Part shown: piece by piece, positions 12,531 through 27,046 of the stretch
Position numbering within the stretch: position 1 is the stretch's first letter
How the letters are laid out: every line of letters starts with the position of its first letter
Assembly: GCA_001771975.1 (NCBI GenBank)
Contig: MERE01000020.1
Coordinates: forward strand, 1-38,626
From: Betaproteobacteria bacterium RIFCSPLOWO2_02_FULL_68_150
GTDB lineage: Bacteria > Pseudomonadota > Gammaproteobacteria > Burkholderiales > SG8-39
Length of the DNA: 38,626 nt
Reading direction: 5' to 3'
Program-made: the position numbers and the translations under genes
The notes under the pieces: generated by a model
Database searches by the model: none
The model's input: only the letters and a program-made list of their open reading frames with translations
What the model was told of the DNA's origin: nothing

Positions 12531-12601
12531 TTGATACAGATGGTATTTTACATATGATATATTGAACCATAATAAAGCACGCGATATGTTGTGATATGCT
12601 G
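12531..12601 (+). promoter_or_regulatory. Putative sigma70-like promoter plus three GATATRYTG repeats upstream of HTH-helicase gene
   Basis: TTGATA (12531-12536), 16 bp, TATGAT (12553-12558); repeats GATATATTG 12556-12564, GATATGTTG 12583-12591, GATATGCTG 12593-12601, immediately before ATG 12610. Confidence 0.4.
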
Positions 12602-12609
12602 GTAAGCGC

Positions 12610-15600
12610 ATGTCCACAACAATTTCAGTCGCACGCATCCGTACACTTCGCGCGCATCTAGGACTGACGCAAGCGAAGCTTGCGGAGTTGATGGGAGTGT
12701 CGTTCGTCACCGTCAACCGCTGGGAGAACGGACAGTCGAGTCCGTCGCGGCTCGCATTGGAAAAAATCGTCCGCGCCGAGCGTCTCGGGCTGGATGGTTT
12801 TTCTGCCGATGCTCCCGCGATGCCGAAGGTGCAACCCGCACCGTCTGACACAACCCTCGACTTCTCCTCCGATCCCGAAGACGTCCGCATTGTCGTCGAG
12901 GCCGAGCGCCTGAGCTACGGCCACCTCGCCAATCCGGCCTTCGCCGCCGAGGTATCGCTCGTCGATCCGCTGCCGCACCAGCGCATCGCGGTGTACAAAC
13001 ACATGGTGCCGCAACCTCGGCTGAGGTTCCTGCTCGCGGACGACGCGGGCGCGGGCAAGACAATCATGGCGGGTCTCTACATCCGCGAGATGCTCGCGCG
13101 CCGGCTCATCCGCCGGGTGCTGGTCGTTCCGCCCGCTGGCCTGATCGGCAACTGGGAACGGGAGCTGCGTCGCCTTTTCAGCCTGTCGTTCCGCATTGTC
13201 ACGGGCGCGGACGCGCGCACGGGGAATCCCTTCGCCGGACCGGGAAGCGACCTCGTCATCGTGAGCCTGGACACGCTGACTGGCGCGCGCCTGTTCACGC
13301 ACCTTCGGTCGGAGACGACCGAGCCCTACGACCTCGTCATCTTCGACGAGGCGCACAAGCTCTCCGCGCGGCGCGATCCGGACGGCACCGTTCGCCCAAC
13401 CGCTCGCTATTGCCTCGCGGAGGCGCTCGCTGGCCTGCGCGGACTCGACGCCGACTGGAAGCTCGGCTGGTCGGCGACGCATCTGCTCCTTCTCACCGCG
13501 ACGCCGCACATGGGGAAGGACTTTCCGTACTACTGCCTGTGGCGCCTGCTCGAGCCTGAGGCGCTTGCCACCGAATCGGCCTTCGCCGCCTACCCGCCCG
13601 AGGCGCGTGCGCGCCGCTTCATCCGGCGCGTCAAGGAGGAGATGGTCTACTTCGACGGTCGGCCGATCTATCCGCAGCGGATCAGCGGCACGCACAGCTA
13701 CGATCTGACGCGGGGCCCGGAGAGCGAACAACAGCTCTACGACGAGACCACCGACTACATCCAGCACTACTACAACCAGGCGCGCATTCTCAATCGCAGT
13801 GCGGCACGCTTCGCCGTGGGTGTTTTCCAGCGGCGCTTGGCCAGTTCGAGCTGGGCGCTCCTTTGCTCGCTCAAGAATCGCCTCGGCAAGCTCGACCGCC
13901 TGATCGAAGCGATTCGCTCCGGACAGATCGACGAAGAGCAGTTGCGCCAGCGCCAGCAGCGGCTCGATCGCGAGCTTGATCGCCATGATCCATTTGAAGC
14001 GACTGCCGACGAAGAAGATTCGGAAGATGGCCGCGAGGCGCACGAGCTCGAGGAGGACAAGGTCCTCGAGGGCGTCATCGCCGTGTCGCTCTCCCAACTC
14101 ATGGTCGAGCGCAGCCGGGTAGAGAGCCTGGTTCATCTCGCGGAGCGCGTGCACGCGAAGGGCGAGGAGTCCAAATTCGAGAAGCTGCGCGATCTGCTTC
14201 GCGCCGAGCGCTTTTCCGGCGAGAAAGTGATCATCTTCACCGAGCACCACGATACGCAGTCATTCCTACTACGGCGCTTCGAAGGGCTGGGCTTCACCGG
14301 CCGCGTCGCGCAGATTCACGGCGGCATGAACTACCGCGAGCGCGAGGCGCAGGTCGAGTTCTTCCGCAAACCGGTCGAAAGGGGCGGCGCCCAATACCTG
14401 GTGTGCACCGACGCCGCGGGCGAAGGCATCAACCTGCAGTTCGCCTGGCTAATGATCAACTACGACATTCCTTGGAACCCGGCACGGCTGGAGCAGCGCA
14501 TGGGCCGCATTCACCGCTACAAGCAGATGCACGACCCGGTGATCATCGCCAACCTCGTCGCCGGGCGCACGCGCGAGGGCCGGGTGCTCAAGACACTGCT
14601 GGAAAAGCTCGAGCGCATCCGCAAGGAGCTGGGTTCGGACAAGGTGTTCGACGTGGTCGGGCGGCTCTTCGAGGGCGTGTCGCTCGCCGAGTATATGGAG
14701 CGCGCAACCGAGAGCGAGGAAGGCGCCGAGCGCGCGGCGCGCGAGCTGGACGGCCGGCTCACCAAGGAGCAGGTCGAGGCGATCGAGGAGGCGAGGCGCT
14801 GCCTCTACGGCGCGGGCGGCGAGGTGCGCGCGGAGCTTGGCGCGCTGCGCGAAAGCCTGTCGGTCGAGGAGTTGCGCAGGCTCCTTCCCGGCTACGTCAT
14901 GCGTTTCCTGGACAAGGCCTGCCCGAAGCTCGGCATCGGCGTCGAGGGAGACCTGGGCAAGACTTTCACGCTGCGGCCGATCGAGCCGCACGCGCTCGAT
15001 CCCGTGCTGCCCCTCGTCGAGTCCTATCCGGAAGCCGCTCAAGGCCGGTATACCGTGTACCGGCCGATCCAGGAAGAGGAAGCGATCTTCCTTCATCCCG
15101 GGGAGCCGGTCTTCGAGGCGCTGCGCGGCGCCGTGCTCGAACGGCTCGCCGCCGCGGCCCGGAAAGGCGCGGTGTTCGTGGACCCGACCGCGACGCAGCC
15201 GTACCTCGTTCACCTTGCGCTTGTCACAATCGTGCGCGCCGCGGATGCGGGCGTGCCGGGGCTCGAGCGCGAGGAGGTACTCGAGCAGCGCCTCATCGGC
15301 CTGCGGCAAGAGGTGGACGGAGCGGTCCAGACCGTACCGGTCGAGCATCTTCTGCTTCTGAAAGGGGCGCCAGGCATCGCTCCGTCGGCGATCGGCCTCG
15401 TCGCCGTGTCGGCGCAACTGAAGGCTGCCGCCGGGGACTACCTCAACGAGCGCGTCGCGCAGCCGCTCGCCGAGGCGAAGCGCGCCGAGGCGCGCGCCGC
15501 GCGCGAGGACGATGATCTGTTCGTCCGCCGCGGCTTCGACTACCAGGACGCGGAGCTCGCCGCCGCGCGCACGCGCCATGCCGGCAAAGCGCGCGCGGGC

Positions 15601-16182
15601 GACGCCATCGCCGGCAAGGATCTCGCCGAAATCAAGGAGCGCCAGCGCGAGCTCGGCGCGCAGCGCGACGCCGCGCTCGCGCGCCTGCGCCGTGGACCGG
15701 AACTGATCCGCGTGGGCCGCGTCGCCTTCCTCGCCCATGCGCTCGCTGCGCCATCCACTCGGCCGGAGGACCGCAAGCACCGCGACGACGCGATCGAGGC
15801 GATTGCCATGCAGCACGCGATCGCGCACGAAGAGGCGCAGGGTGCATCGGTCAAGGACGTCTCCAAACCCCACCTCGCGCGCGCCGTGGGCCTGGGCGAA
15901 TACCCGGGGTTCGACCTTTTCTCCAAGCGTCAGGGCGGCGAGGACCGCGCCATCGAAGTCAAGGGCCGTGCGGGCGTCGGCGAGATCGAACTGACTGAGA
16001 ACGAATGGGCGCGGGCGTGCAATGAGCGGGGGCGGTATTGGTTGTATGTGGTTTTCGACTGCGGAACACCCGCGCCGAAGTTGTTCCGGGTGCGCGACCC
16101 GTTCGGGACTCTCATAGTGGGAACCAAAGGGGGCGTTGTAATCCAATCGCAGTCTATCCTTGCTGTCTCGTCGGAAGGCTAG
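12610..16182 (+). CDS. XRE-HTH / SNF2-family helicase / DUF3883 nuclease-like fusion protein
   Basis: N-term IRTLRAHLGLTQAKLAELMGVSFVTVNRWENGQSSPSRLALEKI (HTH_XRE); LLADDAGAGKTIMAGLYI, VIFDEAHKLS, LLTATPHMG, EQRMGRIHRYKQ (SNF2); C-term EYPGFDLFSKRQGGEDRAIEVKGR (DUF3883/PD-(D/E)XK-like). Confidence 0.92.
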   Translation: MSTTISVARIRTLRAHLGLTQAKLAELMGVSFVTVNRWENGQSSPSRLALEKIVRAERLGLDGFSADAPAMPKVQPAPSDTTLDFSSDPEDVRIVVEAERLSYGHLANPAFAAEVSLVDPLPHQRIAVYKHMVPQPRLRFLLADDAGAGKTIMAGLYIREMLARRLIRRVLVVPPAGLIGNWERELRRLFSLSFRIVTGADARTGNPFAGPGSDLVIVSLDTLTGARLFTHLRSETTEPYDLVIFDEAHKLSARRDPDGTVRPTARYCLAEALAGLRGLDADWKLGWSATHLLLLTATPHMGKDFPYYCLWRLLEPEALATESAFAAYPPEARARRFIRRVKEEMVYFDGRPIYPQRISGTHSYDLTRGPESEQQLYDETTDYIQHYYNQARILNRSAARFAVGVFQRRLASSSWALLCSLKNRLGKLDRLIEAIRSGQIDEEQLRQRQQRLDRELDRHDPFEATADEEDSEDGREAHELEEDKVLEGVIAVSLSQLMVERSRVESLVHLAERVHAKGEESKFEKLRDLLRAERFSGEKVIIFTEHHDTQSFLLRRFEGLGFTGRVAQIHGGMNYREREAQVEFFRKPVERGGAQYLVCTDAAGEGINLQFAWLMINYDIPWNPARLEQRMGRIHRYKQMHDPVIIANLVAGRTREGRVLKTLLEKLERIRKELGSDKVFDVVGRLFEGVSLAEYMERATESEEGAERAARELDGRLTKEQVEAIEEARRCLYGAGGEVRAELGALRESLSVEELRRLLPGYVMRFLDKACPKLGIGVEGDLGKTFTLRPIEPHALDPVLPLVESYPEAAQGRYTVYRPIQEEEAIFLHPGEPVFEALRGAVLERLAAAARKGAVFVDPTATQPYLVHLALVTIVRAADAGVPGLEREEVLEQRLIGLRQEVDGAVQTVPVEHLLLLKGAPGIAPSAIGLVAVSAQLKAAAGDYLNERVAQPLAEAKRAEARAAREDDDLFVRRGFDYQDAELAAARTRHAGKARAGDAIAGKDLAEIKERQRELGAQRDAALARLRRGPELIRVGRVAFLAHALAAPSTRPEDRKHRDDAIEAIAMQHAIAHEEAQGASVKDVSKPHLARAVGLGEYPGFDLFSKRQGGEDRAIEVKGRAGVGEIELTENEWARACNERGRYWLYVVFDCGTPAPKLFRVRDPFGTLIVGTKGGVVIQSQSILAVSSEG

Positions 16183-16192
16183 GGAGCGTGGC

Positions 16193-18892
16193 ATGAGAAA
16201 TGAAAAGCAGGCGAAGCAACAATCGGAGCTTTTGAGTGGCGCGCACTTCCTTCGTTGCGCGCTCCAGGTTAATCCTCATCATTACGCAGAGACGTACCGC
16301 GGAAAGAAGAGTTCGGGACTCGATGAGTCCGGGTATGTCAAGGCTGTTCTGGAGAAGGCGCAAGAACTCGACATTCGCGTACTTGCGATCACGGATCACA
16401 ACCACGTTGGGAGCGTCAAAGCATTCCGGGACGCGGCCAAGCCTTTAGGAATCACGGTATTTCCGGGATTCGAAATAAGCTCACAAGAAGGCATTCACGT
16501 GCTCAGCTTGTATGACGTCGATACGCCCGTGGCCAGCCTGGAAAGGTTCTTGGGCCAACTTGGGATCACCGATACCTCGCCCCAGTCCTCCCTCTCCAAT
16601 CATTCTTTTTCGAGCTTGCTGGAAACCGTGAAGGCTCAGGGGGGCCTCACGATTGCTGCTCACGTCACTCTTGATGACGGTTGCCTGAAGAAGCTGACCG
16701 GGCAATCCCGCATCGCCGCATGGCGAGATCCGAACCTTCTCGCGGTTCAGATTCCGGGAAATGTGGAAGACCTACCTCCGGAGTACAAGTCCATCGTCCA
16801 GAACAAGAACCCTGACTATCGTCGCGACCACGCTGCAGGCAAAGCGTTGGCAGTTGCGGTCGTCAATGCAAAGGACGTATGCAAGGCGGAAGACTTGGCT
16901 GATCCTTCTGCGAGTTGCTTCATCAAGATGTCATGGCCCTCTCTGGAGGCTATACGTCAAGCATTCCTCGACCCTGAATCGCGCGTACGACTCAATTCTG
17001 ACCCGGCGCCGGAAGAGCACGCGGAGATCACGGAGATTGCCTGGGAGGGAGGGTTTCTTGGGGGCGGGGAAGTTCGTTTCAACGACAACTTGAATGTCCT
17101 GATTGGCGGACGCGGTACCGGGAAATCCACGGTCATCGAAAGCCTGCGATACGTGCTGCAGCTCGATCCATTGGGTGCGGACGCGCAGAAGACGCACGCA
17201 AACATGGTCAAGGACGTCATTCGGAGCGGCACCAAGATTTCACTCAAAGTTCGCACGCGATCGCCCGACACGCGCGACTACGTGATCGAGCGCACGGTAC
17301 CGAATCCTCCGATCGTGCGAGAAGTGAATGGCGCGATCGCACGGCTGACGCCACGCGACATACTCCCCAGGGTCGAGGTCCTCGGGCAGCACGAGATCGC
17401 CGAACTGGCTCGACAACCGGATAAGCTCACTCAACTATTAAACCGGTTTCGAAAGTCCAAGACGGACATCGGGGGGGCGAAGCAAGCCGCTCTGCGGGGC
17501 CTCGAACAATCCAGAGGGCGGTTGAAGGAGATCCAAGCGCAGTCCGCGCAAATCGGTGATCGGCTCTCGAAGCTTCCTGCATTGGAGGAGATGCTCAAGC
17601 GTTTCCAACAGGCAGGACTGGAAGATCGTCTCAAGGAACAAAGTCTTCTCGTGCGTGAGGAGCGCATCCTCAAGACAGCGTACGAGCGCATTTCGGAATT
17701 CCAGGAGACAGTAAAAGGCATTCGCGACATGCTGCCGCTCGACACGGCATTTGCTTCGCCGAAGGCATTAGAGGGACTGCCATCCGCTCATCTGTTTCTG
17801 GAGATTGAGGGATCCTTTGCCAATTTGAGCAGAGATGTAACTAGGCTTATCGGCGAGATCGAGAAGGCAATCGGCACATGCAAGTCCTCGGTCGATGCGA
17901 CGGCCGGTAGGTGGCGCGAGCATCAGGCTGCGGTGCAGCAACGATACGAGAAGCTCCTTCGCGAGCTTCAGCGCGCTAGTGTCGACGGCGAGGAGTTCAT
18001 CCGTCTCCGTAAGCAACTTGAGGAGTTAAGGCCTCTGAGAGATCGAAAGAAAGCGCTCGACAAGCAGCTTCAAGAGGAAATCGCTAGGCGCGACGAACTG
18101 CTCGTTCAGTGGGAAGAGGTCCTGCGGCTGGAGTTTCAGGAAATCCAGGCAGCCGCGCAGACCGTAAGCAAGCAGCTCAAAAATCAGCTTCGAGTTGACG
18201 TCAAGATTAGCGGCGATCGAACGCCCTTGGAAAGTTTCCTGCGGGATCACATCGGCGGCCGGTTGACCGAGACGGTCGACCGCATCTCCGGAATGGATCA
18301 ACTGTCCCTCAGGCAGTTCGCCGCCGCGTGCCGCCAAGGAGGTGCCACGCTCATTGTCGACTACGGCATCCCGAACTCGCAAGCCGATCGTATCGCGAAT
18401 GCGCTGCCAGACATTCTCTTGCAACTCGAGGAGCTATACCTACCGCCCACGACGGATATCGCCCTGAACGTCTCGCCGGAGGCAGCGCAACCGGAGTGGA
18501 AACTGCTCAAAGACCTCTCAACAGGGCAAAAGGCAACAGCCGTACTCCTTCTACTCCTGCTTGAAAGTGACGCGCCGCTCGTGGTGGACCAACCTGAAGA
18601 CGATCTAGACAACCGCTTTGTCACCGACACCATCGTTCCGAGAATGCGTGCCGAGAAGCGCAGGCGGCAGTTCATCTTCGCGACGCATAACGCCAACATT
18701 CCGGTACTGGGAGACGCGGAGCAGATCGTCGGTTTGTCTCCGGCCGGGGAGGCGGTCGGTGACGGGACCATCAAACTTCGGCCGGAGCACATGGGTTCGA
18801 TCGACTCGAAACCAGTCCGGGAATTGGTCGAAGAAGTTCTGGAGGGTGGCAAGGAAGCGTTCGAACGTCGTCGCGCAAAGTACGGTTTCTAG
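16193..18892 (+). CDS. PHP-domain phosphoesterase fused to SMC/ABC-type ATPase (TrlF-like)
   Basis: LDIRVLAITDHNHVGSV, GITVFPGFEISSQEGIHVLSLYD, GLTIAAHV (PHP); NLNVLIGGRGTGKSTVIESLRYVL (Walker A), DLSTGQKATAVLLLLLLESDAPLVVDQPEDDLDNRFV (signature/Walker B), IFATHNANIPVLGDAEQIV. Confidence 0.88.
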   Translation: MRNEKQAKQQSELLSGAHFLRCALQVNPHHYAETYRGKKSSGLDESGYVKAVLEKAQELDIRVLAITDHNHVGSVKAFRDAAKPLGITVFPGFEISSQEGIHVLSLYDVDTPVASLERFLGQLGITDTSPQSSLSNHSFSSLLETVKAQGGLTIAAHVTLDDGCLKKLTGQSRIAAWRDPNLLAVQIPGNVEDLPPEYKSIVQNKNPDYRRDHAAGKALAVAVVNAKDVCKAEDLADPSASCFIKMSWPSLEAIRQAFLDPESRVRLNSDPAPEEHAEITEIAWEGGFLGGGEVRFNDNLNVLIGGRGTGKSTVIESLRYVLQLDPLGADAQKTHANMVKDVIRSGTKISLKVRTRSPDTRDYVIERTVPNPPIVREVNGAIARLTPRDILPRVEVLGQHEIAELARQPDKLTQLLNRFRKSKTDIGGAKQAALRGLEQSRGRLKEIQAQSAQIGDRLSKLPALEEMLKRFQQAGLEDRLKEQSLLVREERILKTAYERISEFQETVKGIRDMLPLDTAFASPKALEGLPSAHLFLEIEGSFANLSRDVTRLIGEIEKAIGTCKSSVDATAGRWREHQAAVQQRYEKLLRELQRASVDGEEFIRLRKQLEELRPLRDRKKALDKQLQEEIARRDELLVQWEEVLRLEFQEIQAAAQTVSKQLKNQLRVDVKISGDRTPLESFLRDHIGGRLTETVDRISGMDQLSLRQFAAACRQGGATLIVDYGIPNSQADRIANALPDILLQLEELYLPPTTDIALNVSPEAAQPEWKLLKDLSTGQKATAVLLLLLLESDAPLVVDQPEDDLDNRFVTDTIVPRMRAEKRRRQFIFATHNANIPVLGDAEQIVGLSPAGEAVGDGTIKLRPEHMGSIDSKPVRELVEEVLEGGKEAFERRRAKYGF

Positions 18893-18901
18893 GAGGCGAG
18901 A

Positions 18902-20131
18902 ATGCTACGAGCCGAGTTGCAGGAACTGATCAGAAACGGCGAGAGCTCAGGAGTCGAATTCAAGCTAGATGCCCTTCAGAACTACGAGCTCGCCAAGGAG
19001 ATCGTTGCGTTCGCAAACTTCGCTGGCGGGGTGGTGCTGCTCGGCGTCGCCGATGACGGCAGCGTGCAGGGAATCACGCGCGCCAACCTCGAGGAGTGGG
19101 TGATGGAACTGTGCCGTAGCAACGTTGATCCCCCAATTATTCCCTATTACGAAGCGTTTCCAGACTTTGAGCCTGGCCGAACGGTGGTAGCTGTGCGGGT
19201 CCTTCAAGGGCCCGACAAGCCCTATGCGTGGGTGCACCACAATCGCCGGACCTACTGTATTCGCGTCGGCACCACCTCGCGTGAGGCGAGCCGCGAGGAG
19301 CTCGAACGCATGTTCCAGGAAGCGGGCGGTCTCCGGTACGGCATGAAGCCACTCCCCGGCGCGGCTTTTGAAGACCTCGATCTGCGCCGTCTCAAGGATT
19401 ATTTCGGCCGAGTCCTTGGGCAACACTTTCCCGCGGACCCCGATAGCACTGGGTGGTGTCGCTTACTCTCCAACCTTGAACTAATGGTGGCCGCAGGCGA
19501 CCGGACCGTCCCCACCGTTGACGGAATGCTGCTGTTCGGTCGCAACCCGAAGCGCTTTCTTCCACAGTCGGGGGTCCGGGCGATTGCCTACCCAGGGCAC
19601 CTACCGGATTACGCCGCCCGAGCCGATCAGGAGTTGGTTGGCCCGATGGTTCCCCTTCTGTCTGAATCCGGCAGCCCTCCCGAAGTTGTCATGGTCGAGA
19701 ATGGTTTAGTCGAGCAGGCACTCGACTTCGTCAATCGCAATACGCAGCCGGAGGCCCGGATCGAAAACGGGACGCGCGTCGATTGCAGAGCCTATCCGGT
19801 CGAAGTACTTCGAGAGGCGATTGTCAACGCGCTCGTTCACCGCGATTACACCATCGCGGGGACAGACATCACGATGACGATCTTCAACAACCGGCTAGAG
19901 ATCCAGAGCCCCGGCCGCTTACCAAATACAGCGACCGTGGAGGCCCTCAAATCAGGCTTTCGCTACGCTCGCAACCAGATGCTCGTAAACATCATGCGCG
20001 ACTACCGTTACGTCGAATTCCGCGGCATGGGCATCCGCGACAAGATCATTCCGGGGATGCGCGCGCACAACGGCACCGAGGCGGTATTTGTAGAAGGCGG
20101 TCATTCTTTCGCCGTGACGTTGCTCCAGTAG
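18902..20131 (+). CDS. AlbA_2/Schlafen-core ATP-binding protein with HATPase_c-like C-terminus
   Basis: ESSGVEFKLDALQNYELAKEIVAFANFAGGVVLLGVADDGSVQGI (AlbA_2), REAIVNALVHRDYTIAGTDITMTIFNNRLEIQSPGRLP, FRGMGIRDKI; RBS AGGAGG upstream. Confidence 0.9.
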   Translation: MLRAELQELIRNGESSGVEFKLDALQNYELAKEIVAFANFAGGVVLLGVADDGSVQGITRANLEEWVMELCRSNVDPPIIPYYEAFPDFEPGRTVVAVRVLQGPDKPYAWVHHNRRTYCIRVGTTSREASREELERMFQEAGGLRYGMKPLPGAAFEDLDLRRLKDYFGRVLGQHFPADPDSTGWCRLLSNLELMVAAGDRTVPTVDGMLLFGRNPKRFLPQSGVRAIAYPGHLPDYAARADQELVGPMVPLLSESGSPPEVVMVENGLVEQALDFVNRNTQPEARIENGTRVDCRAYPVEVLREAIVNALVHRDYTIAGTDITMTIFNNRLEIQSPGRLPNTATVEALKSGFRYARNQMLVNIMRDYRYVEFRGMGIRDKIIPGMRAHNGTEAVFVEGGHSFAVTLLQ

Positions 20132-20144
20132 AGGCGTTGCACAA

Positions 20145-23100
20145 ATGAACAATGGGCGCCTCATCGAATCCGCCTTTCCGCTTAAGCAAGCTTCGCTTGA
20201 CTCGGTGCACGAGAAAAACGTCCGCCACGGGCACATCTCGACGCTACACATCTGGCCGGCGCGGAGGCCGCTGGCAGCGTGCCGCGCTGCACTGATCGCG
20301 ACGTTGCTTCCCGATCCAGGCAGCGCGGAGAAAAGAACGGAGCTGCTCGAACGAATCGGTGGCAGGCTCGAACCGAAGCTGATCAGGAAGAAACTGCCCT
20401 CGGGCAAGGTCGAGGAGATTGCGGCCTTCGAGACAGTTGGCGGCATTTTGCATTGGGGCCGCGAATCCGATCCGGACATCAATTGGTTCCGCGCCGAAAT
20501 CCGCAAAGCCTACGGTGGCCGCGCGCCGCGCGTGCTTGATCCGTTCGCGGGTGGCGGTGCTATTCCACTGGAGGCGATGCGCCTTGGGTGCGAGGTGACT
20601 GCGGTAGATATCAATCCGGTCGCCTGGTTCATCCTGAAGTGCACGCTCGAATATCCGCAGAAGCTCGCCGGGCAGAAGCGGCGGCTGCCCGACTTTGCCT
20701 TACAGGACCGGGAGTTCATGGGGGCGTTCTTTAAGGCGCAGGGATTGAAGGGTGCGCTCCTTCGCACGCGCCTTGAGCGGCTCGGGCTCGGCGAGGACCC
20801 CGCGCCGCAGCTCACCGGAATCGAGGCGGGCGATCCACTTTTAGAGGCAGATCTCGCGTGGCATGTGCGCGCGTGGGGCCGCTGGGTGCTTGCGCGTGCG
20901 CGGAAAGACCTCGCCCGTTTCTATCCCACTTACGCCGAGTTCGAGCCGGTAGATGGTTCCCCGCGCGAACCGAAGAAGAGCAAAGGCCTTCAGTTCGTGC
21001 CGCTCGACACCGAGGGGCGTGCGAATGTGGATGCCCTGAACGCCGAGTTCGACGAGAAATACCTTGCCGACGGGCGCAACGCTCGCTGGGTCGCGAAGCC
21101 CACGGTTGCCTACCTCTGGGCGCGCACGGTCGCGTGCAAGAACTGCCGCGCAACCGTGCTGCTCCTTAAGACGCGGTGGCTTTGCAGGAAGGACACGAAG
21201 CGGGTGCTCCTTGGGATAGAGCCAAACAAGGAGAAGACAGGCATCGTATTCGGTGTTGAGCAAAACGTACCGGTCGTCGGCGCGAACGCGGCCGCGCGGC
21301 GCGAGCACGACAAACGCATCGGTGCGGGCACAATGTCGCGTTCAGGCGCTCAGTGTCTGTGCTGTAAGGCCGTTATCGAGATGGAGGACATCCGCCTTGA
21401 AGGTCGCGCCGGCCGCTTGGGCACTGTGATGACTGCGGCTGTCGTAGATGGGCAGGACGGCAAGGAGTACCGGCTGCCAACTGAGGTGGAGTTGCGCGCA
21501 GCTGAGGAAGCCGCGCGCGAGGTGCCAAGGGTCTTCGCTGATATTCCCTTCGGACTGCCGACTGAGCCGCTACCGAGCAAAGAAGCGCTCGGCTTTCGCG
21601 TTCCACTATACGGCATTGACCAGTGGCACAAGCTGCATACATCCCGGCAACTAGTCGCTCTCGGAACGCTACTGAGAGCAATTAGAAACGCGACAGAGGC
21701 TACCGCTTCCTTTGGCTATTCGCAGCTTTGGTCACAAGCGCTTGCGATGTTCCTGGCAGCAGCCCTCGACCGAACCGCAAACTATCTGAGCACGTTGTGT
21801 ATCTGGGAATCAGTGGCAGAGGAAGTCAAACAAACGTTTCTCCGTTTTGCTCTTCCGATCACTTGGGACTTCGGGGAAGGGAACCCCCTCGCGCCAAATG
21901 AGCGCTTCTTCATCGGCGCCATCGCCAATGTTGCAGATGTCTTGGATCGCCTACTCAATGCCGTTACTGCTTGGTCTTCTTCTCCGACGGTTGAGGCGCG
22001 AAGTGCAACCGCTGCCTCCGCGAGTACCTTTGACTTGGTCCTGACTGATCCGCCGTATTACGACGCTATACCCTATTCGGATCTGATGGATTTCTTTTAC
22101 GTTTGGCTGCGACGCGTTCTGGCGGGGCAAGACGCCGAGATCGACCGGGCATTCTCGATGCCCTTGGGGCCAAAGTGGGATGCCCAAACGGAAGACGGCG
22201 AGTTAATCGATGATGCATCACGGTTTGCTGGCGACGGTGCAAAGTCCAAGCGAGCCTATGAGGAGGGAATGTTCCGTTCGTTTCGGCGTTGCCAGGAGGC
22301 ACTGAACGTCGACGGGCGCATGGTGGTTGTATTCGCGAACAAGAAACCTGACGCGTGGGAAACGCTTGCTAGTGCAATGATCCGAGCCGGTTTTGTAGTA
22401 GATGGGTCTTGGCCAATCATGACGGAGATGAGAGGTGGTGTTAGGAATTTCGGGAGGGCGTCGCTGGCTTCTTCTGTATGGCTGGTGTGCCGCAAGCGCT
22501 CCGAAGCCGCGCGCCCCGGCTGGGACAACCGGGTGTTGGAAGATATGCATCGAAACATCACGCTGAAGCTGCGCGAGTTCTGGGACACAGGGATTCGTGG
22601 CCCGGACTTCGTGTGGGCAGCAACGGGTCCGGCGCTGGAGGCGTACAGCCAGCACCCGGCGGTGAAGAAGGCGAACAATCCCGGCGAATTGATGACGGTG
22701 TCGGAGTTCCTCAAGCACGTACGCCGGATTGTGGTGGACTTCGTGGTCGGCCGGGTGCTGCTTGGGGATGCGTCGAGCGAGGAGGCTTCGGGGCTAGACG
22801 ACGTAACCAGCTACTACCTTCTGCACCGGCACGACTTCGGGTTGAAAGAGGCACCGGCTGGCACGTGCATCCTGTACGCGCTCTCGTGCGGGCTCTCCGA
22901 TCGGGAACTTGCCGATCAATACGACCTGCTCGTACGCACGGGCGGCAAGGACGAGGCCGAGGCAGACGACGACGTGGAGGAGGTGGAAGGCGAGGAAGAA
23001 GGCTCCAAGGGTTCGGGCAGCAGGGTGAAACTCAAACCCTGGCAGCAGAGAAAGGTCCGCAGCCTCGGCTATGAGACCGCAGGCGGCCGGGCGGCGCCAC

Positions 23101-23330
23101 TGATTGACCAGGTGCATCGGCTCATGCACCTGTGGAAGTCCGGCGAGGTAGTGAAGGTAAACGAATACTTGGATGCGCGCGCGCTGCGCCAGAACAGGAT
23201 GTTCCACCACCTGCTGCAGGCGCTGATCGAGCTCGCACCGCACGCGAGCGAGGAACGCTCGCTACTGGAGTCGATCAGCAATCACGTCGTTGCACGCGGC
23301 GTGGCGCCGCAGGAGGAGTTGCGACTGTGA
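20145..23330 (+). CDS. DUF1156 DNA methylase with Zn-ribbon (COG1743-like)
   Basis: RLIESAFPLKQASLDSVHEKNVRHGHISTLHIWPARRPLAACRA (DUF1156), VLDPFAGGGAIPLEAMRLGCEVTAVDINPVA (SAM motif), CKNC and CLCC pairs, LVLTDPPYYDAIPYSDLMDFFYVWLRR (DPPY). Confidence 0.93.
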   Translation: MNNGRLIESAFPLKQASLDSVHEKNVRHGHISTLHIWPARRPLAACRAALIATLLPDPGSAEKRTELLERIGGRLEPKLIRKKLPSGKVEEIAAFETVGGILHWGRESDPDINWFRAEIRKAYGGRAPRVLDPFAGGGAIPLEAMRLGCEVTAVDINPVAWFILKCTLEYPQKLAGQKRRLPDFALQDREFMGAFFKAQGLKGALLRTRLERLGLGEDPAPQLTGIEAGDPLLEADLAWHVRAWGRWVLARARKDLARFYPTYAEFEPVDGSPREPKKSKGLQFVPLDTEGRANVDALNAEFDEKYLADGRNARWVAKPTVAYLWARTVACKNCRATVLLLKTRWLCRKDTKRVLLGIEPNKEKTGIVFGVEQNVPVVGANAAARREHDKRIGAGTMSRSGAQCLCCKAVIEMEDIRLEGRAGRLGTVMTAAVVDGQDGKEYRLPTEVELRAAEEAAREVPRVFADIPFGLPTEPLPSKEALGFRVPLYGIDQWHKLHTSRQLVALGTLLRAIRNATEATASFGYSQLWSQALAMFLAAALDRTANYLSTLCIWESVAEEVKQTFLRFALPITWDFGEGNPLAPNERFFIGAIANVADVLDRLLNAVTAWSSSPTVEARSATAASASTFDLVLTDPPYYDAIPYSDLMDFFYVWLRRVLAGQDAEIDRAFSMPLGPKWDAQTEDGELIDDASRFAGDGAKSKRAYEEGMFRSFRRCQEALNVDGRMVVVFANKKPDAWETLASAMIRAGFVVDGSWPIMTEMRGGVRNFGRASLASSVWLVCRKRSEAARPGWDNRVLEDMHRNITLKLREFWDTGIRGPDFVWAATGPALEAYSQHPAVKKANNPGELMTVSEFLKHVRRIVVDFVVGRVLLGDASSEEASGLDDVTSYYLLHRHDFGLKEAPAGTCILYALSCGLSDRELADQYDLLVRTGGKDEAEADDDVEEVEGEEEGSKGSGSRVKLKPWQQRKVRSLGYETAGGRAAPLIDQVHRLMHLWKSGEVVKVNEYLDARALRQNRMFHHLLQALIELAPHASEERSLLESISNHVVARGVAPQEELRL

Positions 23331-23695
23331 AGTCTTTCGAACCCGCCTATCTGGAGCGACCAGTGTCGCAGAACCTGCTGCGCAGCGTGGGACTGCTGCG
23401 GGAGTTCAAGGGGCGGCAGGATTTGCACAAGCGGTGGGTGCCCCAAGCGCTCCAAACGCTCCGGCAGGCGGCGATCATTCAGAGCACCGAGTCGTCGAAC
23501 CGCATTGAGGGCGTGACCGCGCCGCTGAAACGCATTCAGGCGCTGGTGGCCGAAAAGACCACGCCGGGCGACCGGTCGGAGCACGAAATTGCAGGCTATC
23601 GAGACGTCTTGGACATCATCCACGCCAACCACGCTGCGATTCTGATCATGCAACCCAGCGTCCAAACAACCGGCGCTGGCACACATAGTACGTAA
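23327..23695 (+). pseudogene. Truncated Fic-family gene (N-terminal part only)
   Basis: GTGA overlap with methylase stop; (V)KSFEPAYLERPVSQNLLRSVGLLREFKGRQDLHKRWVPQALQTLRQAAIIQSTESSNRIEGVTAPLKRIQALVAEKTTPGDRSEHEIAGYRDVLDIIHANHAAILIMQPSVQTTGAGTHST*; no HPFx(D/E)GNGR motif. Confidence 0.82.
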
Positions 23696-23764
23696 TTATT
23701 AGGTACTGAATAAGACTCCGTACGTATATAGGCGTCTAGATCACGGTTCAGAGAGGAAGCCCCG

Positions 23765-26700
23765 ATGGCGAAGCCTGCATGGAAACCCTGGCATGAGGTA
23801 GTGAAGCTGCGCGAGGACGTGCGCACGGGCGAACTGTCGCTCGCGACCTTCGCTGCGGATCTCCACCAAGTGATGATGGGGCAGGCGAAGCCGGTCTATC
23901 AGGAGCCGACAGAATTCTTCGCGCTCACCTATCCGACGTACAACCTGCGCGAACTCTCGAAAGAGGTTGTGCTGCGGCTCGCCGGGAAGAACGACAAGGC
24001 TGTGCGGCAGTTAGCGTTTCCCTACGGCGGCGGCAAGACCCACACGCTGATCACGCTCTACCACCTCGTCAACGAACCGAAGAAGCTGCCCGACCTGCCG
24101 GCGGTGCGCGAATTCAGGCAGGCGATCGGGGTGGAGCCCCCTCAGGCGCGAGTGGTGGCGCTGCCTTTCGATCAGATCGACCCTGAGAGGGGAATGAATA
24201 CCAAGTCTCCGGCCGGCGATCTGCGTTGGCTGAAGCATCCCTGGAGCATTCTGGCGTTTCAACTTGCTGGCAAAGCTGGGTTGGAAGCGCTGCATGCGGA
24301 AGGCAAATCCGAAGAGCGTGAGACCGCGCCCGCGGAGAACTTGCTGACGCAAGTGCTCAAGCTCGCGCGCAACGGAGGATTTTCAGTCCTTGTGCTGGTA
24401 GACGAGGTGCTGATGTATGCGCGCGAGAAGGCCGGTGCAAATCCAGTGTGGCGCTCCCGGCTCGCGAATTTCTTTCAATACCTGACGCAAGCGGTCAGCA
24501 AAGTCGACCGTTGCGCCCTGGTTGCTTCGCTGCTTGCTTCCGATCCGAGACGGATGGATGCTGCGGGAAACGAGATCTTCAATGAGCTTTCCACCATCTT
24601 CGGCCGGCTGCAGGAGGAGACGGTGCAGCCGGTCTCGAAAGATGATGTTGCCGAGGTGCTGCGTCGGCGTTTCTTCAAGCCGGAGTCGATCAAGGATCGG
24701 GAGGCGTTTCGTCCCCACGTCGTCGCAGCGATGAAAGGCATCGCCGATATCGATGAGCAGACAAGGAAGGAAGGCAAGAGCGCCGAGGCGCGCTTCGTGG
24801 CGAGCTATCCCTTCCATCCGGACCTGACCGACGTGCTCTACGCCAAGTGGACCAACCTCGAGCGCTTCCAGCGTACGCGGGGCGTCCTGCGAACCTTTGC
24901 GCTCGCACTGCGCGATGCGGAGAAGTGGGACCAGTCGCCGCTCGTCGGAGCGAATGTGTTTCTGCAATCTGAGGGCAAAACAGGTCTCACCGAGGCGGGG
25001 CGCGAACTCACCTCGGTAGCGGATTTCGAGGAGTACGACAACCGGCGCTACGACTGGAGCGGAATTCTCGAGGAGGAGCTGAAGAAAGCGCGCGAGATCC
25101 AGGCCGAAATGTCCGGGCTCGCCTACCGGGAGCTGGAGCAGGCGGTGTTCGCCACGTTCCTGCACTCGCAGCCGATCGGGCGCCACGCGGTGACTCGCGA
25201 GCTGATGGTGCTGCTCGGCGCGACTCGCCCGGACCGGATCGTGCTGGAGAAGACGCTCAAGCGCTGGACCGAGGTATCGTGGTTCCTCGACGAGGCGGCG
25301 ATCAGCGACCGCGAGGAAGGCATCACGCTGCCGAAGTTATGGCGCCTGGGCTTCAAACCGAACCTGCGGCAGATGCATTCGGACGCGATGCAGCGCGTGC
25401 CCGACGATCTGATCGAGGCGCGTCTCATCGACGAAATCGCGCGTACGAAGAGCCTGACAGTAGGCGCGAGCGCGGCTGGTGCGAAGGTGCACACCTTGCC
25501 GCAACGACCGAACGACATCGAAGACGAAGGAGACTTCCACTTCGCAGTGCTCGGGCCCAAGGCAGCGTCCGAATCCGGCAAGCCGAGTACCGAGGCGCGG
25601 CGCTTCATCGAGGAAACAACCGCCCCAGACAGGCCCCGCGTGAACCGCAACGCTGTGGTCCTCGCAGTACCCGCCAGGGAGGCGATCGAGGTGGTGAAGC
25701 AACGCATTCGCGAGTATCTGGGCTGGGAAGAAGTGCGCGCGATGCTCAAGGACCAGAAGATCGATCCGATCCGCGAGCAAACTCTTTCGGTACACATCGA
25801 CGCTTCTAAGCGCGCGATTCCAGAGTCCGTGCAGCAGGCGTATTCGATCGTTGTTACATTTTCGGAGAAAGGCGAAGTACACGCCTTCAAGATCGCGCCG
25901 AACGGCGAGCCGCTCTTTGCGCTAATCAAGAAGGACCAGCGCGCACGGATTCAGGAAACCGCGGTCACGGCCGAAGCCCTGTTGCCCGATGGTCCGTACA
26001 ACCTGTGGCGGCCGGGAGAAACAACGCAGTGGGTCAAGAACCTCGTTGGCGCGTTCGCCCAATTCCCGCATCTGCCGAAAATGCTCAATCGCGACGCAAT
26101 CGTGCAAACGCTCGTGCGCGGCTGCGAAGAGGGCGCGTTCGTGCTGCGCCTTACTCGGCCGGACAAGTCGGTGAAGACGTACTGGCGCGAGCGGCCGGAC
26201 GAAGCCGCGCTCAGGGATCCCGGCCTCGAGGTGGTGCTGCCTGAAGCCGCCGAAGTGACGGCGCTCGATCACACGCTGCTTGCACCACAGCGGCTGCCGG
26301 GTCTCTGGACCGGCGCGGAGATTCCGGTCAAGCGCCTCCACGAGTTCTTCGCCGGCAAGGTCGTGGTCAAAGTGGACCGCGGCGGCTACCAAGAGCCGTT
26401 GGTGATTCCGAAAGCCAGTCGCGGTGTGACCGAGTCTGCGGTCCAAGCTGCCGTGAAGGAAGGCGTCCTTTGGCTGACCGCGGGGCCGGCGTCGCTGCTT
26501 GGCGAAGAGATTCCCGCAGGGGTGCTCAGCGTTGAGGCGGTCCTTCAGGCCCCGCCCGAGGCGATTCCCGCGACGCAACTGCTGCCGGCTAATCTGCCCG
26601 ACGCGTGGAAGAGGGAAGAAAGCACCGCTCTTGCGATGGCGGTTGCCCTCTCGCAGAAGCATGGGCGGACGCTGCCGTGGGGAACGGTGAAGCAGGCGAT

Positions 26701-27046
26701 CGATGGAGCACTCCGCGCGCGGTTCCTGGAGCGGCCGGAGAGCTTTCCGCTTTGGCCCTGCGCATATCCAGACGCCGGGAACCTTAAGCTTCGCGTCACG
26801 AAAGGGGAAGCGCCCGGCGCGCAGGAACGCAAGGCAGGCGTCAAGTCGACGCATGCCGAGTTACGAGGCAATGAGTTGCAGGATCTCGCGGAAGTAATCG
26901 CAGAGATCACGAAAGTTGCGGCAGGGCATGATCTCAAGTATTTCGTGCGCATCGAGCTGGGCGGCGAAAAACCGGTACCGGAAAGTGTAGTCGAGGACGT
27001 GAACAAGGCGCTTTCAAAAGCGTCGGAGAAGCTGAGGCTGGAATAA
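23765..27046 (+). CDS. DUF499 AAA+ ATPase (COG1483-like, anti-phage-associated family)
   Basis: 1093 aa; KPWHEVVKLREDVRTGELSLATFAADLHQVMMGQAKPVYQEPTEFFALTYPTYNLRELSKEVVLRL; Walker A FPYGGGKTHTLITLYHL; Walker B VLVLVDEVLMYAREK; RBS GAGGAAG. Confidence 0.9.
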   Translation: MAKPAWKPWHEVVKLREDVRTGELSLATFAADLHQVMMGQAKPVYQEPTEFFALTYPTYNLRELSKEVVLRLAGKNDKAVRQLAFPYGGGKTHTLITLYHLVNEPKKLPDLPAVREFRQAIGVEPPQARVVALPFDQIDPERGMNTKSPAGDLRWLKHPWSILAFQLAGKAGLEALHAEGKSEERETAPAENLLTQVLKLARNGGFSVLVLVDEVLMYAREKAGANPVWRSRLANFFQYLTQAVSKVDRCALVASLLASDPRRMDAAGNEIFNELSTIFGRLQEETVQPVSKDDVAEVLRRRFFKPESIKDREAFRPHVVAAMKGIADIDEQTRKEGKSAEARFVASYPFHPDLTDVLYAKWTNLERFQRTRGVLRTFALALRDAEKWDQSPLVGANVFLQSEGKTGLTEAGRELTSVADFEEYDNRRYDWSGILEEELKKAREIQAEMSGLAYRELEQAVFATFLHSQPIGRHAVTRELMVLLGATRPDRIVLEKTLKRWTEVSWFLDEAAISDREEGITLPKLWRLGFKPNLRQMHSDAMQRVPDDLIEARLIDEIARTKSLTVGASAAGAKVHTLPQRPNDIEDEGDFHFAVLGPKAASESGKPSTEARRFIEETTAPDRPRVNRNAVVLAVPAREAIEVVKQRIREYLGWEEVRAMLKDQKIDPIREQTLSVHIDASKRAIPESVQQAYSIVVTFSEKGEVHAFKIAPNGEPLFALIKKDQRARIQETAVTAEALLPDGPYNLWRPGETTQWVKNLVGAFAQFPHLPKMLNRDAIVQTLVRGCEEGAFVLRLTRPDKSVKTYWRERPDEAALRDPGLEVVLPEAAEVTALDHTLLAPQRLPGLWTGAEIPVKRLHEFFAGKVVVKVDRGGYQEPLVIPKASRGVTESAVQAAVKEGVLWLTAGPASLLGEEIPAGVLSVEAVLQAPPEAIPATQLLPANLPDAWKREESTALAMAVALSQKHGRTLPWGTVKQAIDGALRARFLERPESFPLWPCAYPDAGNLKLRVTKGEAPGAQERKAGVKSTHAELRGNELQDLAEVIAEITKVAAGHDLKYFVRIELGGEKPVPESVVEDVNKALSKASEKLRLE

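What the first reader, a model, noticed from the sequence alone, without database searches (positions are those of the whole stretch)
12531..27046. Six-gene putative anti-phage cassette: HTH-SNF2-DUF3883 / PHP-ATPase / Schlafen-AlbA / DUF1156 methylase / Fic remnant / DUF499 ATPase
Seen directly: six co-directional ORFs with gaps of 10, 9 and 13 nt, a 4-nt overlap, and 69 nt, flanked by unrelated core genes and a decayed gene. Established: DUF1156 (COG1743-like) methylases, DUF499 (COG1483-like) ATPases and SNF2/DUF3883 helicases are associated with defence islands, and helicase-methylase-ATPase systems (such as Hma in PADLOC) have been described. Inference: the added PHP-SMC ATPase and Schlafen/AlbA ATP-binding protein may form an expanded or hybrid system, with modification (methylase), sensing or translocation (DUF499, SNF2) and nuclease effectors (DUF3883, PHP).
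Basis: partly seen in the sequence, partly recalled or inferred. Interest (0 to 1): 0.9.

Follow-up and report, generated by a model that had tools for sequence, protein, structure and literature searches.

The report
Hma defence operon with nested TrlFG
This is a known kind of bacterial anti-virus operon (Hma, also called a type-1 BREX-related system) that carries, nested inside it, a separate two-gene growth-arrest module (trlF-trlG) which we also find nested in other DNA-methylation-based defence operons.

Summary
The reading frames and spacings are real. Three of the six genes are the core of a named system: HmaA, HmaB and HmaC (PADLOC E 1e-155, 2e-109, 3e-85), renamed 'type-1 BREX-related' in 2026. 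The 'PHP-ATPase' and 'AlbA' genes are not new Hma subunits. They are trlF and trlG, the pair described as the Photorhabdus 'temperature restricting locus', where TrlG arrests growth. TrlG directly follows TrlF at 22 of 31 TrlF loci in same-phylum genomes. The pair is also nested in type I R-M operons, BREX type-1 and type-3-like operons and three other Hma operons. Two operons with 89-93% identical cores differ cleanly at the HmaA|HmaB site: one holds trlFG, the other a NYN nuclease gene. So trlFG is exchangeable cargo. The HmaB and TrlF trees disagree, which also points to transfer. The Fic gene is a truncated relic of another cargo gene. Most likely Hma modifies and restricts DNA, while TrlF senses trouble and switches on TrlG to stop growth (inferred). 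The 2026 catalogue of such cargo lists Schlafen proteins but not TrlF. New variant of a known kind; interest moderate.

The parts
12610..16182 (+). HmaA: SNF2 helicase with C-terminal NOV_C (PD-(D/E)XK-like) domain and an N-terminal XRE-type helix-turn-helix
   Evidence: PADLOC HmaA 9.7e-156 over residues 75-1165; HTH_3 residues 10-56, NOV_C 1062-1158. The N-terminal region aligns in 49 of the 56 relatives with a near-complete HmaA
16193..18892 (+). TrlF: PHP-like domain plus SMC/OLD-type ABC ATPase (nested cargo, gene 1)
   Evidence: NCBIfam NF045780 TrlF family 523.9 bits, cut-off 350; Walker A GGRGTGKST, LSTGQ, DQPEDDLDN intact; PHP metal motif I changed to QVN
18902..20131 (+). TrlG: Schlafen/AlbA_2 domain plus GHKL-type ATP-binding domain (nested cargo, gene 2)
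   Evidence: SLFN_AlbA_2 5.5e-18 and HATPase_c_4 6.7e-20, the TrlG architecture of Photorhabdus (PMC7554251); 50-62% identical to TrlG of other Hma operons
20145..23330 (+). HmaB: DUF1156 DNA methyltransferase with DPPY motif
   Evidence: PADLOC HmaB 2.4e-109; DUF1156 5.7e-18; DPPYYDAIPYSD invariant in relatives
23327..23695 (+). Truncated Fic gene: keeps the N-terminal part with the inhibitory-type motif SNRIEG, lacks the HPFxDGNGR core
   Evidence: 60% identity to residues 1-103 of the intact 347-aa Fic between HmaB and HmaC in L054; L054 protein matches PF02661
23765..27046 (+). HmaC: DUF499 AAA+ ATPase without the N-terminal HEPN domain
   Evidence: PADLOC HmaC 2.6e-85; PF04465 1.5e-17; Walker A PYGGGKTHT, Walker B LVLVDE in the sequence

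Best explanation
The locus is an Hma (type-1 BREX-related) operon whose HmaA|HmaB junction carries a nested, exchangeable two-gene module, trlF-trlG, and whose HmaB|HmaC junction carries a broken Fic cargo gene. HmaB methylates host DNA; HmaC and the helicase-nuclease HmaA recognise and restrict unmodified DNA (inferred from the family). TrlF, an ABC-type ATPase with weak similarity to the AriA sensor of PARIS, most likely monitors infection or failure of the surrounding restriction system and activates TrlG. TrlG is a Schlafen-type protein with an ATP-binding domain that arrests growth, probably by cutting RNA, as a second line when restriction fails. Shown here: gene identities, the pairing of TrlF with TrlG, nesting in several host systems, the clean cargo swap, tree conflict. 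Shown by others: TrlG-dependent growth arrest in Photorhabdus. Inferred: the trigger, RNA cleavage, and any role in phage defence.
For: Core identity. TrlF family above cut-off and TrlF-TrlG adjacent in 22 of 31 loci. Photorhabdus trlG point mutations restore growth at 36 C and an intact operon copy restores arrest (PMC7554251). Nesting: Hma in L040, L041 and L068; type I R-M in L143, L183, L185, L186; BREX-1 in L145; PglXI-TrlF-TrlG-...-BrxH in L155 and L158, and PglX-AIPR-PtuAB-TrlFG in L178. Swap: L041 and L044 share HmaA at 92.9%, HmaB at about 91% and HmaC at about 89% DNA identity, but carry trlFG versus a NYN gene between HmaA and HmaB. Cargo is the rule in this clade: gaps over 1 kb in 44 of 69 A|B and 34 of 72 B|C junctions, 190 of 212 gap frames co-directional, with families such as AAA_21, Schlafen, TIR, NYN, SIR2, ApeA, AbiJ. 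Trees: TrlFs of the four Hma operons form one clade (100/99) while their HmaBs are scattered. TrlF's C-terminal ATPase region is weakly similar to AriA (E 0.005).
Against: No experiment links TrlFG to phage defence; the only known phenotype is heat-linked growth arrest. In Photorhabdus no trlF mutant was selected, so TrlF may not be needed for TrlG action (PMC7554251). TrlF of the window type has lost the two PHP histidines of motif I (QVN for HxH) and the motif-IV histidine, and often occurs without TrlG, so sensor-effector roles could be otherwise. The second Schlafen glutamate is Gln in the Yersinia/IncC TrlGs, so RNA cutting may not be general. The TrlG structure model was poor (pLDDT 45). 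In L040 HmaA is only a C-terminal piece, so that operon may be broken.
Confidence: 0.62

Rival explanations
1. An integrated six-gene (or five-gene) system in which TrlF and TrlG are working subunits of Hma.
For: Close spacing of 9-13 nt and one direction. The four Hma-associated TrlFs are one clade, which suggests adaptation to Hma.
Against: 77 of 80 relatives lack TrlF next to the core, although some of those loci are cut short. There is a clean swap for a NYN gene between 89-93% identical operons. The pair sits at two different positions in Hma operons and lives in other systems or alone.
Confidence: 0.12
2. TrlFG acts as a stand-alone stress or addiction module (such as heat, stationary phase or plasmid maintenance) that merely hitch-hikes in defence operons, with no role in phage defence.
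For: Temperature-linked growth arrest in Photorhabdus (PMC7554251); many free-standing copies on plasmids and chromosomes.
Against: Repeated nesting inside methylase-based defence operons of at least three kinds. It shares its sites in Hma with known abortive-infection effector families.
Confidence: 0.22
3. TrlF and TrlG inserted by chance and are now unselected passengers.
For: The Fic gene next door is already broken.
Against: Both frames are intact with ABC, Schlafen and GHKL motifs kept. Three relatives carry the pair against about 0.014 expected.
Confidence: 0.04

Closest known systems
Hma system (PADLOC; PMC8565338), renamed type-1 BREX-related (BR) system (PMC12839542)
   Same: HmaA helicase, HmaB DUF1156 methylase, HmaC DUF499 ATPase, co-directional; C-terminal nuclease-like domain on the helicase; no PglZ found in the operon
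   Different: N-terminal XRE helix-turn-helix on HmaA where the published architecture has a TUDOR domain; trlFG and a Fic relic nested between core genes
Temperature restricting locus trlR-trlF-trlG of Photorhabdus (PMC7554251)
   Same: Adjacent trlF (PHP-ATPase) and trlG (AlbA_2 + HATPase_c_4)
   Different: No trlR; nested in a restriction-like operon; a different TrlF subfamily (PHP motif I QVN, about 25% identity to the Yersinia ruckeri pYR3 relative)
PARIS (AriA-AriB) and other OLD-ABC modules embedded in BREX/BR loci (PMC12839542)
   Same: ABC-ATPase plus nuclease-like partner nested in methylase-based defence operons; weak AriA similarity in the TrlF ATPase
   Different: TrlF adds a PHP-like domain; the partner is Schlafen-GHKL, not a TOPRIM nuclease
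PrrC-like anticodon nucleases nested in type I R-M operons (own knowledge)
   Same: Growth-arrest gene inside a restriction operon
   Different: Two genes; other folds; trigger unknown
Ppl (PHP-ATPase anti-phage protein)
   Same: PHP + SMC-like ATPase layout
   Different: 193.8 bits against a cut-off of 1000, so not a member; TrlF usually has the partner TrlG

Membership tests
Hma / type-1 BR | SNF2 helicase HmaA, methylase HmaB and DUF499 ATPase HmaC in one locus | tested here: met
   PADLOC hits 9.7e-156, 2.4e-109, 2.6e-85
Hma / type-1 BR | C-terminal PD-(D/E)XK-type nuclease on the helicase | tested here: met
   NOV_C 3.5e-16, residues 1062-1158; fold inferred, catalysis untested
Hma / type-1 BR | N-terminal TUDOR domain on the helicase (PMC12839542) | tested here: inconclusive
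   The first 60 positions of the HmaA profile are unmatched and an XRE HTH sits there; a divergent TUDOR cannot be excluded without a structure
Type-3 BR / BREX | PglZ (and iSTAND) in the core locus | tested here: not met
   All frames of the operon are accounted for and none is PglZ
Type-2 BR | Stand-alone DUF3780 gene and N-terminal HKD nuclease on the helicase | tested here: not met
   No such Pfam match in any of the six proteins
TrlF family (NF045780) | Score above curated cut-off 350 | tested here: met
   523.9 bits
TRL locus (trlRFG) | trlF next to trlG (AlbA_2 + HATPase_c_4) | tested here: met
   Gap of 9 nt; domains
TRL locus (trlRFG) | Small regulator trlR next to the pair | tested here: not met
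   Upstream neighbour is HmaA, downstream neighbour is HmaB
TRL locus (trlRFG) | Growth arrest by TrlG | not testable with these tools
   Known only for Photorhabdus (PMC7554251)
Ppl | Score above curated cut-off 1000 | tested here: not met
   193.8 bits
Any anti-phage system | Protection against phage | not testable with these tools

The most novel reading that the evidence does not exclude
TrlF-TrlG is a general guard module that nests in methylase-based defence operons (Hma, type I R-M, BREX 1 and 3) and stops growth when the host restriction system is overcome; the Photorhabdus 'temperature restriction' is this defence module misfiring.
Probability: 0.4. Interest if true: 0.75.

Novelty: new variant of a known kind. 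Interest (0 to 1): 0.52.

Why it matters
It joins two literatures that do not meet in the text searched: the 2026 catalogue of BREX/BR backup effectors lists Schlafen-histidine-kinase proteins but has no mention of PHP, TrlF, temperature or Photorhabdus, and the 2020 trlFG paper treats the pair as a temperature switch. If TrlFG is a defence guard, a natural limit on bacterial growth temperature would be explained as an immune by-product. E. coli genomes also carry a testable nested copy (38 of 5,426 genomes). The clade is a clear case of a defence operon whose effector cargo is swapped in place.

Tried and rejected
Six-gene integrated system: rejected on the L041/L044 swap and the 77 of 80 loci without TrlF. 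Ppl membership: rejected on score. Solved-structure search: no relative of HmaB or HmaC, only weak hits for TrlF (AriA, SMC3) and TrlG (3lmm). Mapping Photorhabdus mutations on the window: only approximate, since the Photorhabdus sequence was not held and Yersinia numbering drifts by about two residues; used only for Ser16, which falls between the two Schlafen glutamates. Phage records: only distant TrlF relatives. Paper searches for TrlF with phage found none. A bioRxiv preprint on bacterial Schlafens, cited in PMC12839542, is not held and could not be read.

Full report
Observation. The six co-directional frames are present with the reported spacings, and the domain calls are right. The G+C content dips to 0.57-0.62 over 16-25 kb against 0.67-0.70 outside. 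Flanking genes are ordinary metabolism.

Core system. HmaA, HmaB and HmaC match the PADLOC Hma models at 9.7e-156, 2.4e-109 and 2.6e-85. Hma was named in PMC8565338. PMC12839542 renames it a type-1 BREX-related (BR) system: DUF499 ATPase, DUF1156 N6-methylase and SNF2 helicase with a C-terminal nuclease, no PglZ. The window fits: NOV_C on HmaA, DPPY in HmaB, no PglZ, no DUF3780. Its HmaA bears an XRE helix-turn-helix in place of the published TUDOR position, and 49 of the 56 relatives with a near-complete HmaA align through that region. The HmaC has no HEPN fusion.

Relatives. One scan of 85,462 genomes with an HmaB alignment gave 80 loci from many phyla at 53-65% identity. HmaA-HmaB-HmaC is kept in nearly all that are not cut short. 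TrlF and TrlG together occur in three (L040 Dehalococcoidia, L041 Gammaproteobacteria, L068 Accumulibacter). About 0.014 would be expected from the frequency of TrlF in 399 same-phylum genomes (a rough Poisson estimate).

What the two extra genes are. The PHP-ATPase scores 523.9 bits against the TrlF family cut-off of 350. The gene name trlF comes from the Photorhabdus temperature restricting locus trlR-trlF-trlG (PMC7554251); that the family is named after it is my inference. There TrlG has AlbA_2 plus HATPase_c_4, the same layout as the window gene. In Photorhabdus 19 of 29 sequenced tolerant clones had a SNP in trlG and one more had an IS insertion, and complementation with the operon restored arrest. 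One mutation, Ser16Asn, lies between the two conserved glutamates of the Schlafen motif (E14-x4-E19, window numbering; inference from similar numbering). In same-phylum genomes TrlG directly follows TrlF in 22 of 31 loci, so this is a genuine two-gene unit.

Nesting. On plasmids the pair lies inside type I R-M operons in two arrangements: HsdM-HsdS-TrlF-TrlG-HsdR in L143 and HsdR-TrlF-TrlG-HsdS-AAA-HsdM in L183 and L186, with L185 cut after HsdS. It also lies inside a BREX-1 operon, PglX-TrlF-TrlG-PglZ-BrxL in L145. In genomes it sits in PglXI-TrlF-TrlG-(ABC pair)-BrxH in L155, a PglXI-TrlF-TrlG-BrxH fragment in L158, and PglX-AIPR-PtuA-PtuB-TrlF-TrlG in L178. It also stands alone (most distant chromosomal copies). 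TrlF without TrlG is common on plasmids.

Exchange. L041 and L044 have HmaA 92.9% identical through 77 nt past the stop codon, HmaB about 91% and HmaC about 89%. Between HmaA and HmaB L041 carries 4.0 kb with trlFG; L044 carries 1.1 kb with a NYN-domain gene. The four Hma-borne TrlFs are one clade (100/99), while their HmaBs need at least four changes of the label on starred branches. The HmaB tree used a quick method and there are only four labelled rows, so this is supportive rather than decisive. In L040 the pair lies between HmaB and HmaC instead. Across the clade, cargo between core genes is the rule: gaps over 1 kb in 44 of 69 HmaA|HmaB and 34 of 72 HmaB|HmaC junctions, with 190 of 212 gap frames on the operon strand. 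The families are mainly ABC ATPases (22), Schlafen (7), TIR (4), DUF2806 (4), YhcG (3), NYN (3), and SIR2, ApeA, AbiJ and GmrSD (2 each). The Fic relic is one more such cargo: L054 has the intact 347-aa gene at the same junction, and the window keeps 103 residues.

Mechanism. From the families: methylase self-marking, helicase-nuclease restriction, TrlG-dependent arrest. Inferred here: TrlF senses and TrlG executes. Active sites bear on this. In the window subfamily the ABC motifs and the Schlafen glutamates are kept, but PHP motif I is QVN rather than HxH and the last histidine is lost. In the Yersinia/IncC subfamily PHP motif I is intact, but the second Schlafen glutamate is Gln. Other TrlF-TrlG pairs have both. 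So PHP catalysis may be dispensable when the Schlafen site is whole, and the reverse; this is a hypothesis.

Comparison and verdict. The core is already known. PMC12839542 lists Schlafen-histidine-kinase proteins next to BREX/BR loci in at least 1,017 taxa, which covers TrlG in type. It does not mention PHP, TrlF, temperature or Photorhabdus, and no held paper joins TrlF with phage. New here are the identification of that cargo as trlFG, its recurrence as one unit across Hma, type I R-M and BREX, and the in-place swap. The Photorhabdus paper had already noted type I methyltransferase fragments beside the pair on pYR3. Supplementary tables of the 2026 paper and bioRxiv were not searchable, so priority cannot be fully excluded.

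Noticed in passing
L030-L109 (HmaA|HmaB and HmaB|HmaC junctions): The HTH-bearing Hma clade carries different effector genes between its core genes in about half or more of loci, a possible source of undescribed defence effectors (112 singleton ORF clusters, some of them probably spurious frames).
   Followed up: partly
L033:13292-15504 and L060:7813-9995: A Schlafen/AlbA gene paired with a ParA-like AAA_31 ATPase, nested in Hma operons; a second Schlafen pairing besides TrlF.
   Followed up: partly
L178:1195-12388: PglX - AIPR - PtuA - PtuB - TrlF - TrlG in a row: several abortive modules stacked behind one BREX-type methylase.
   Followed up: partly
L155:4766-17182: PglXI - TrlF - TrlG - ABC/HEC-03-like pair - unknown - BrxH: type-3-like BREX with two nested modules.
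   Followed up: partly
window 16193-16920 (PHP region of TrlF): PHP metal motif I is QVN instead of HxH throughout the subfamily that includes Hma, IncC type I, BREX-1 and Gram-positive plasmid TrlFs; it is conserved, so probably functional in an altered form.
   Followed up: partly
window 12610-12780: XRE helix-turn-helix fused to the N-terminus of HmaA; could give DNA-site binding or autoregulation. Conserved across the clade.
   Followed up: partly
L040:4878-8940: HmaA is reduced to a C-terminal piece next to another SNF2 helicase on the opposite strand; this trlFG-bearing operon may be broken.
   Followed up: no
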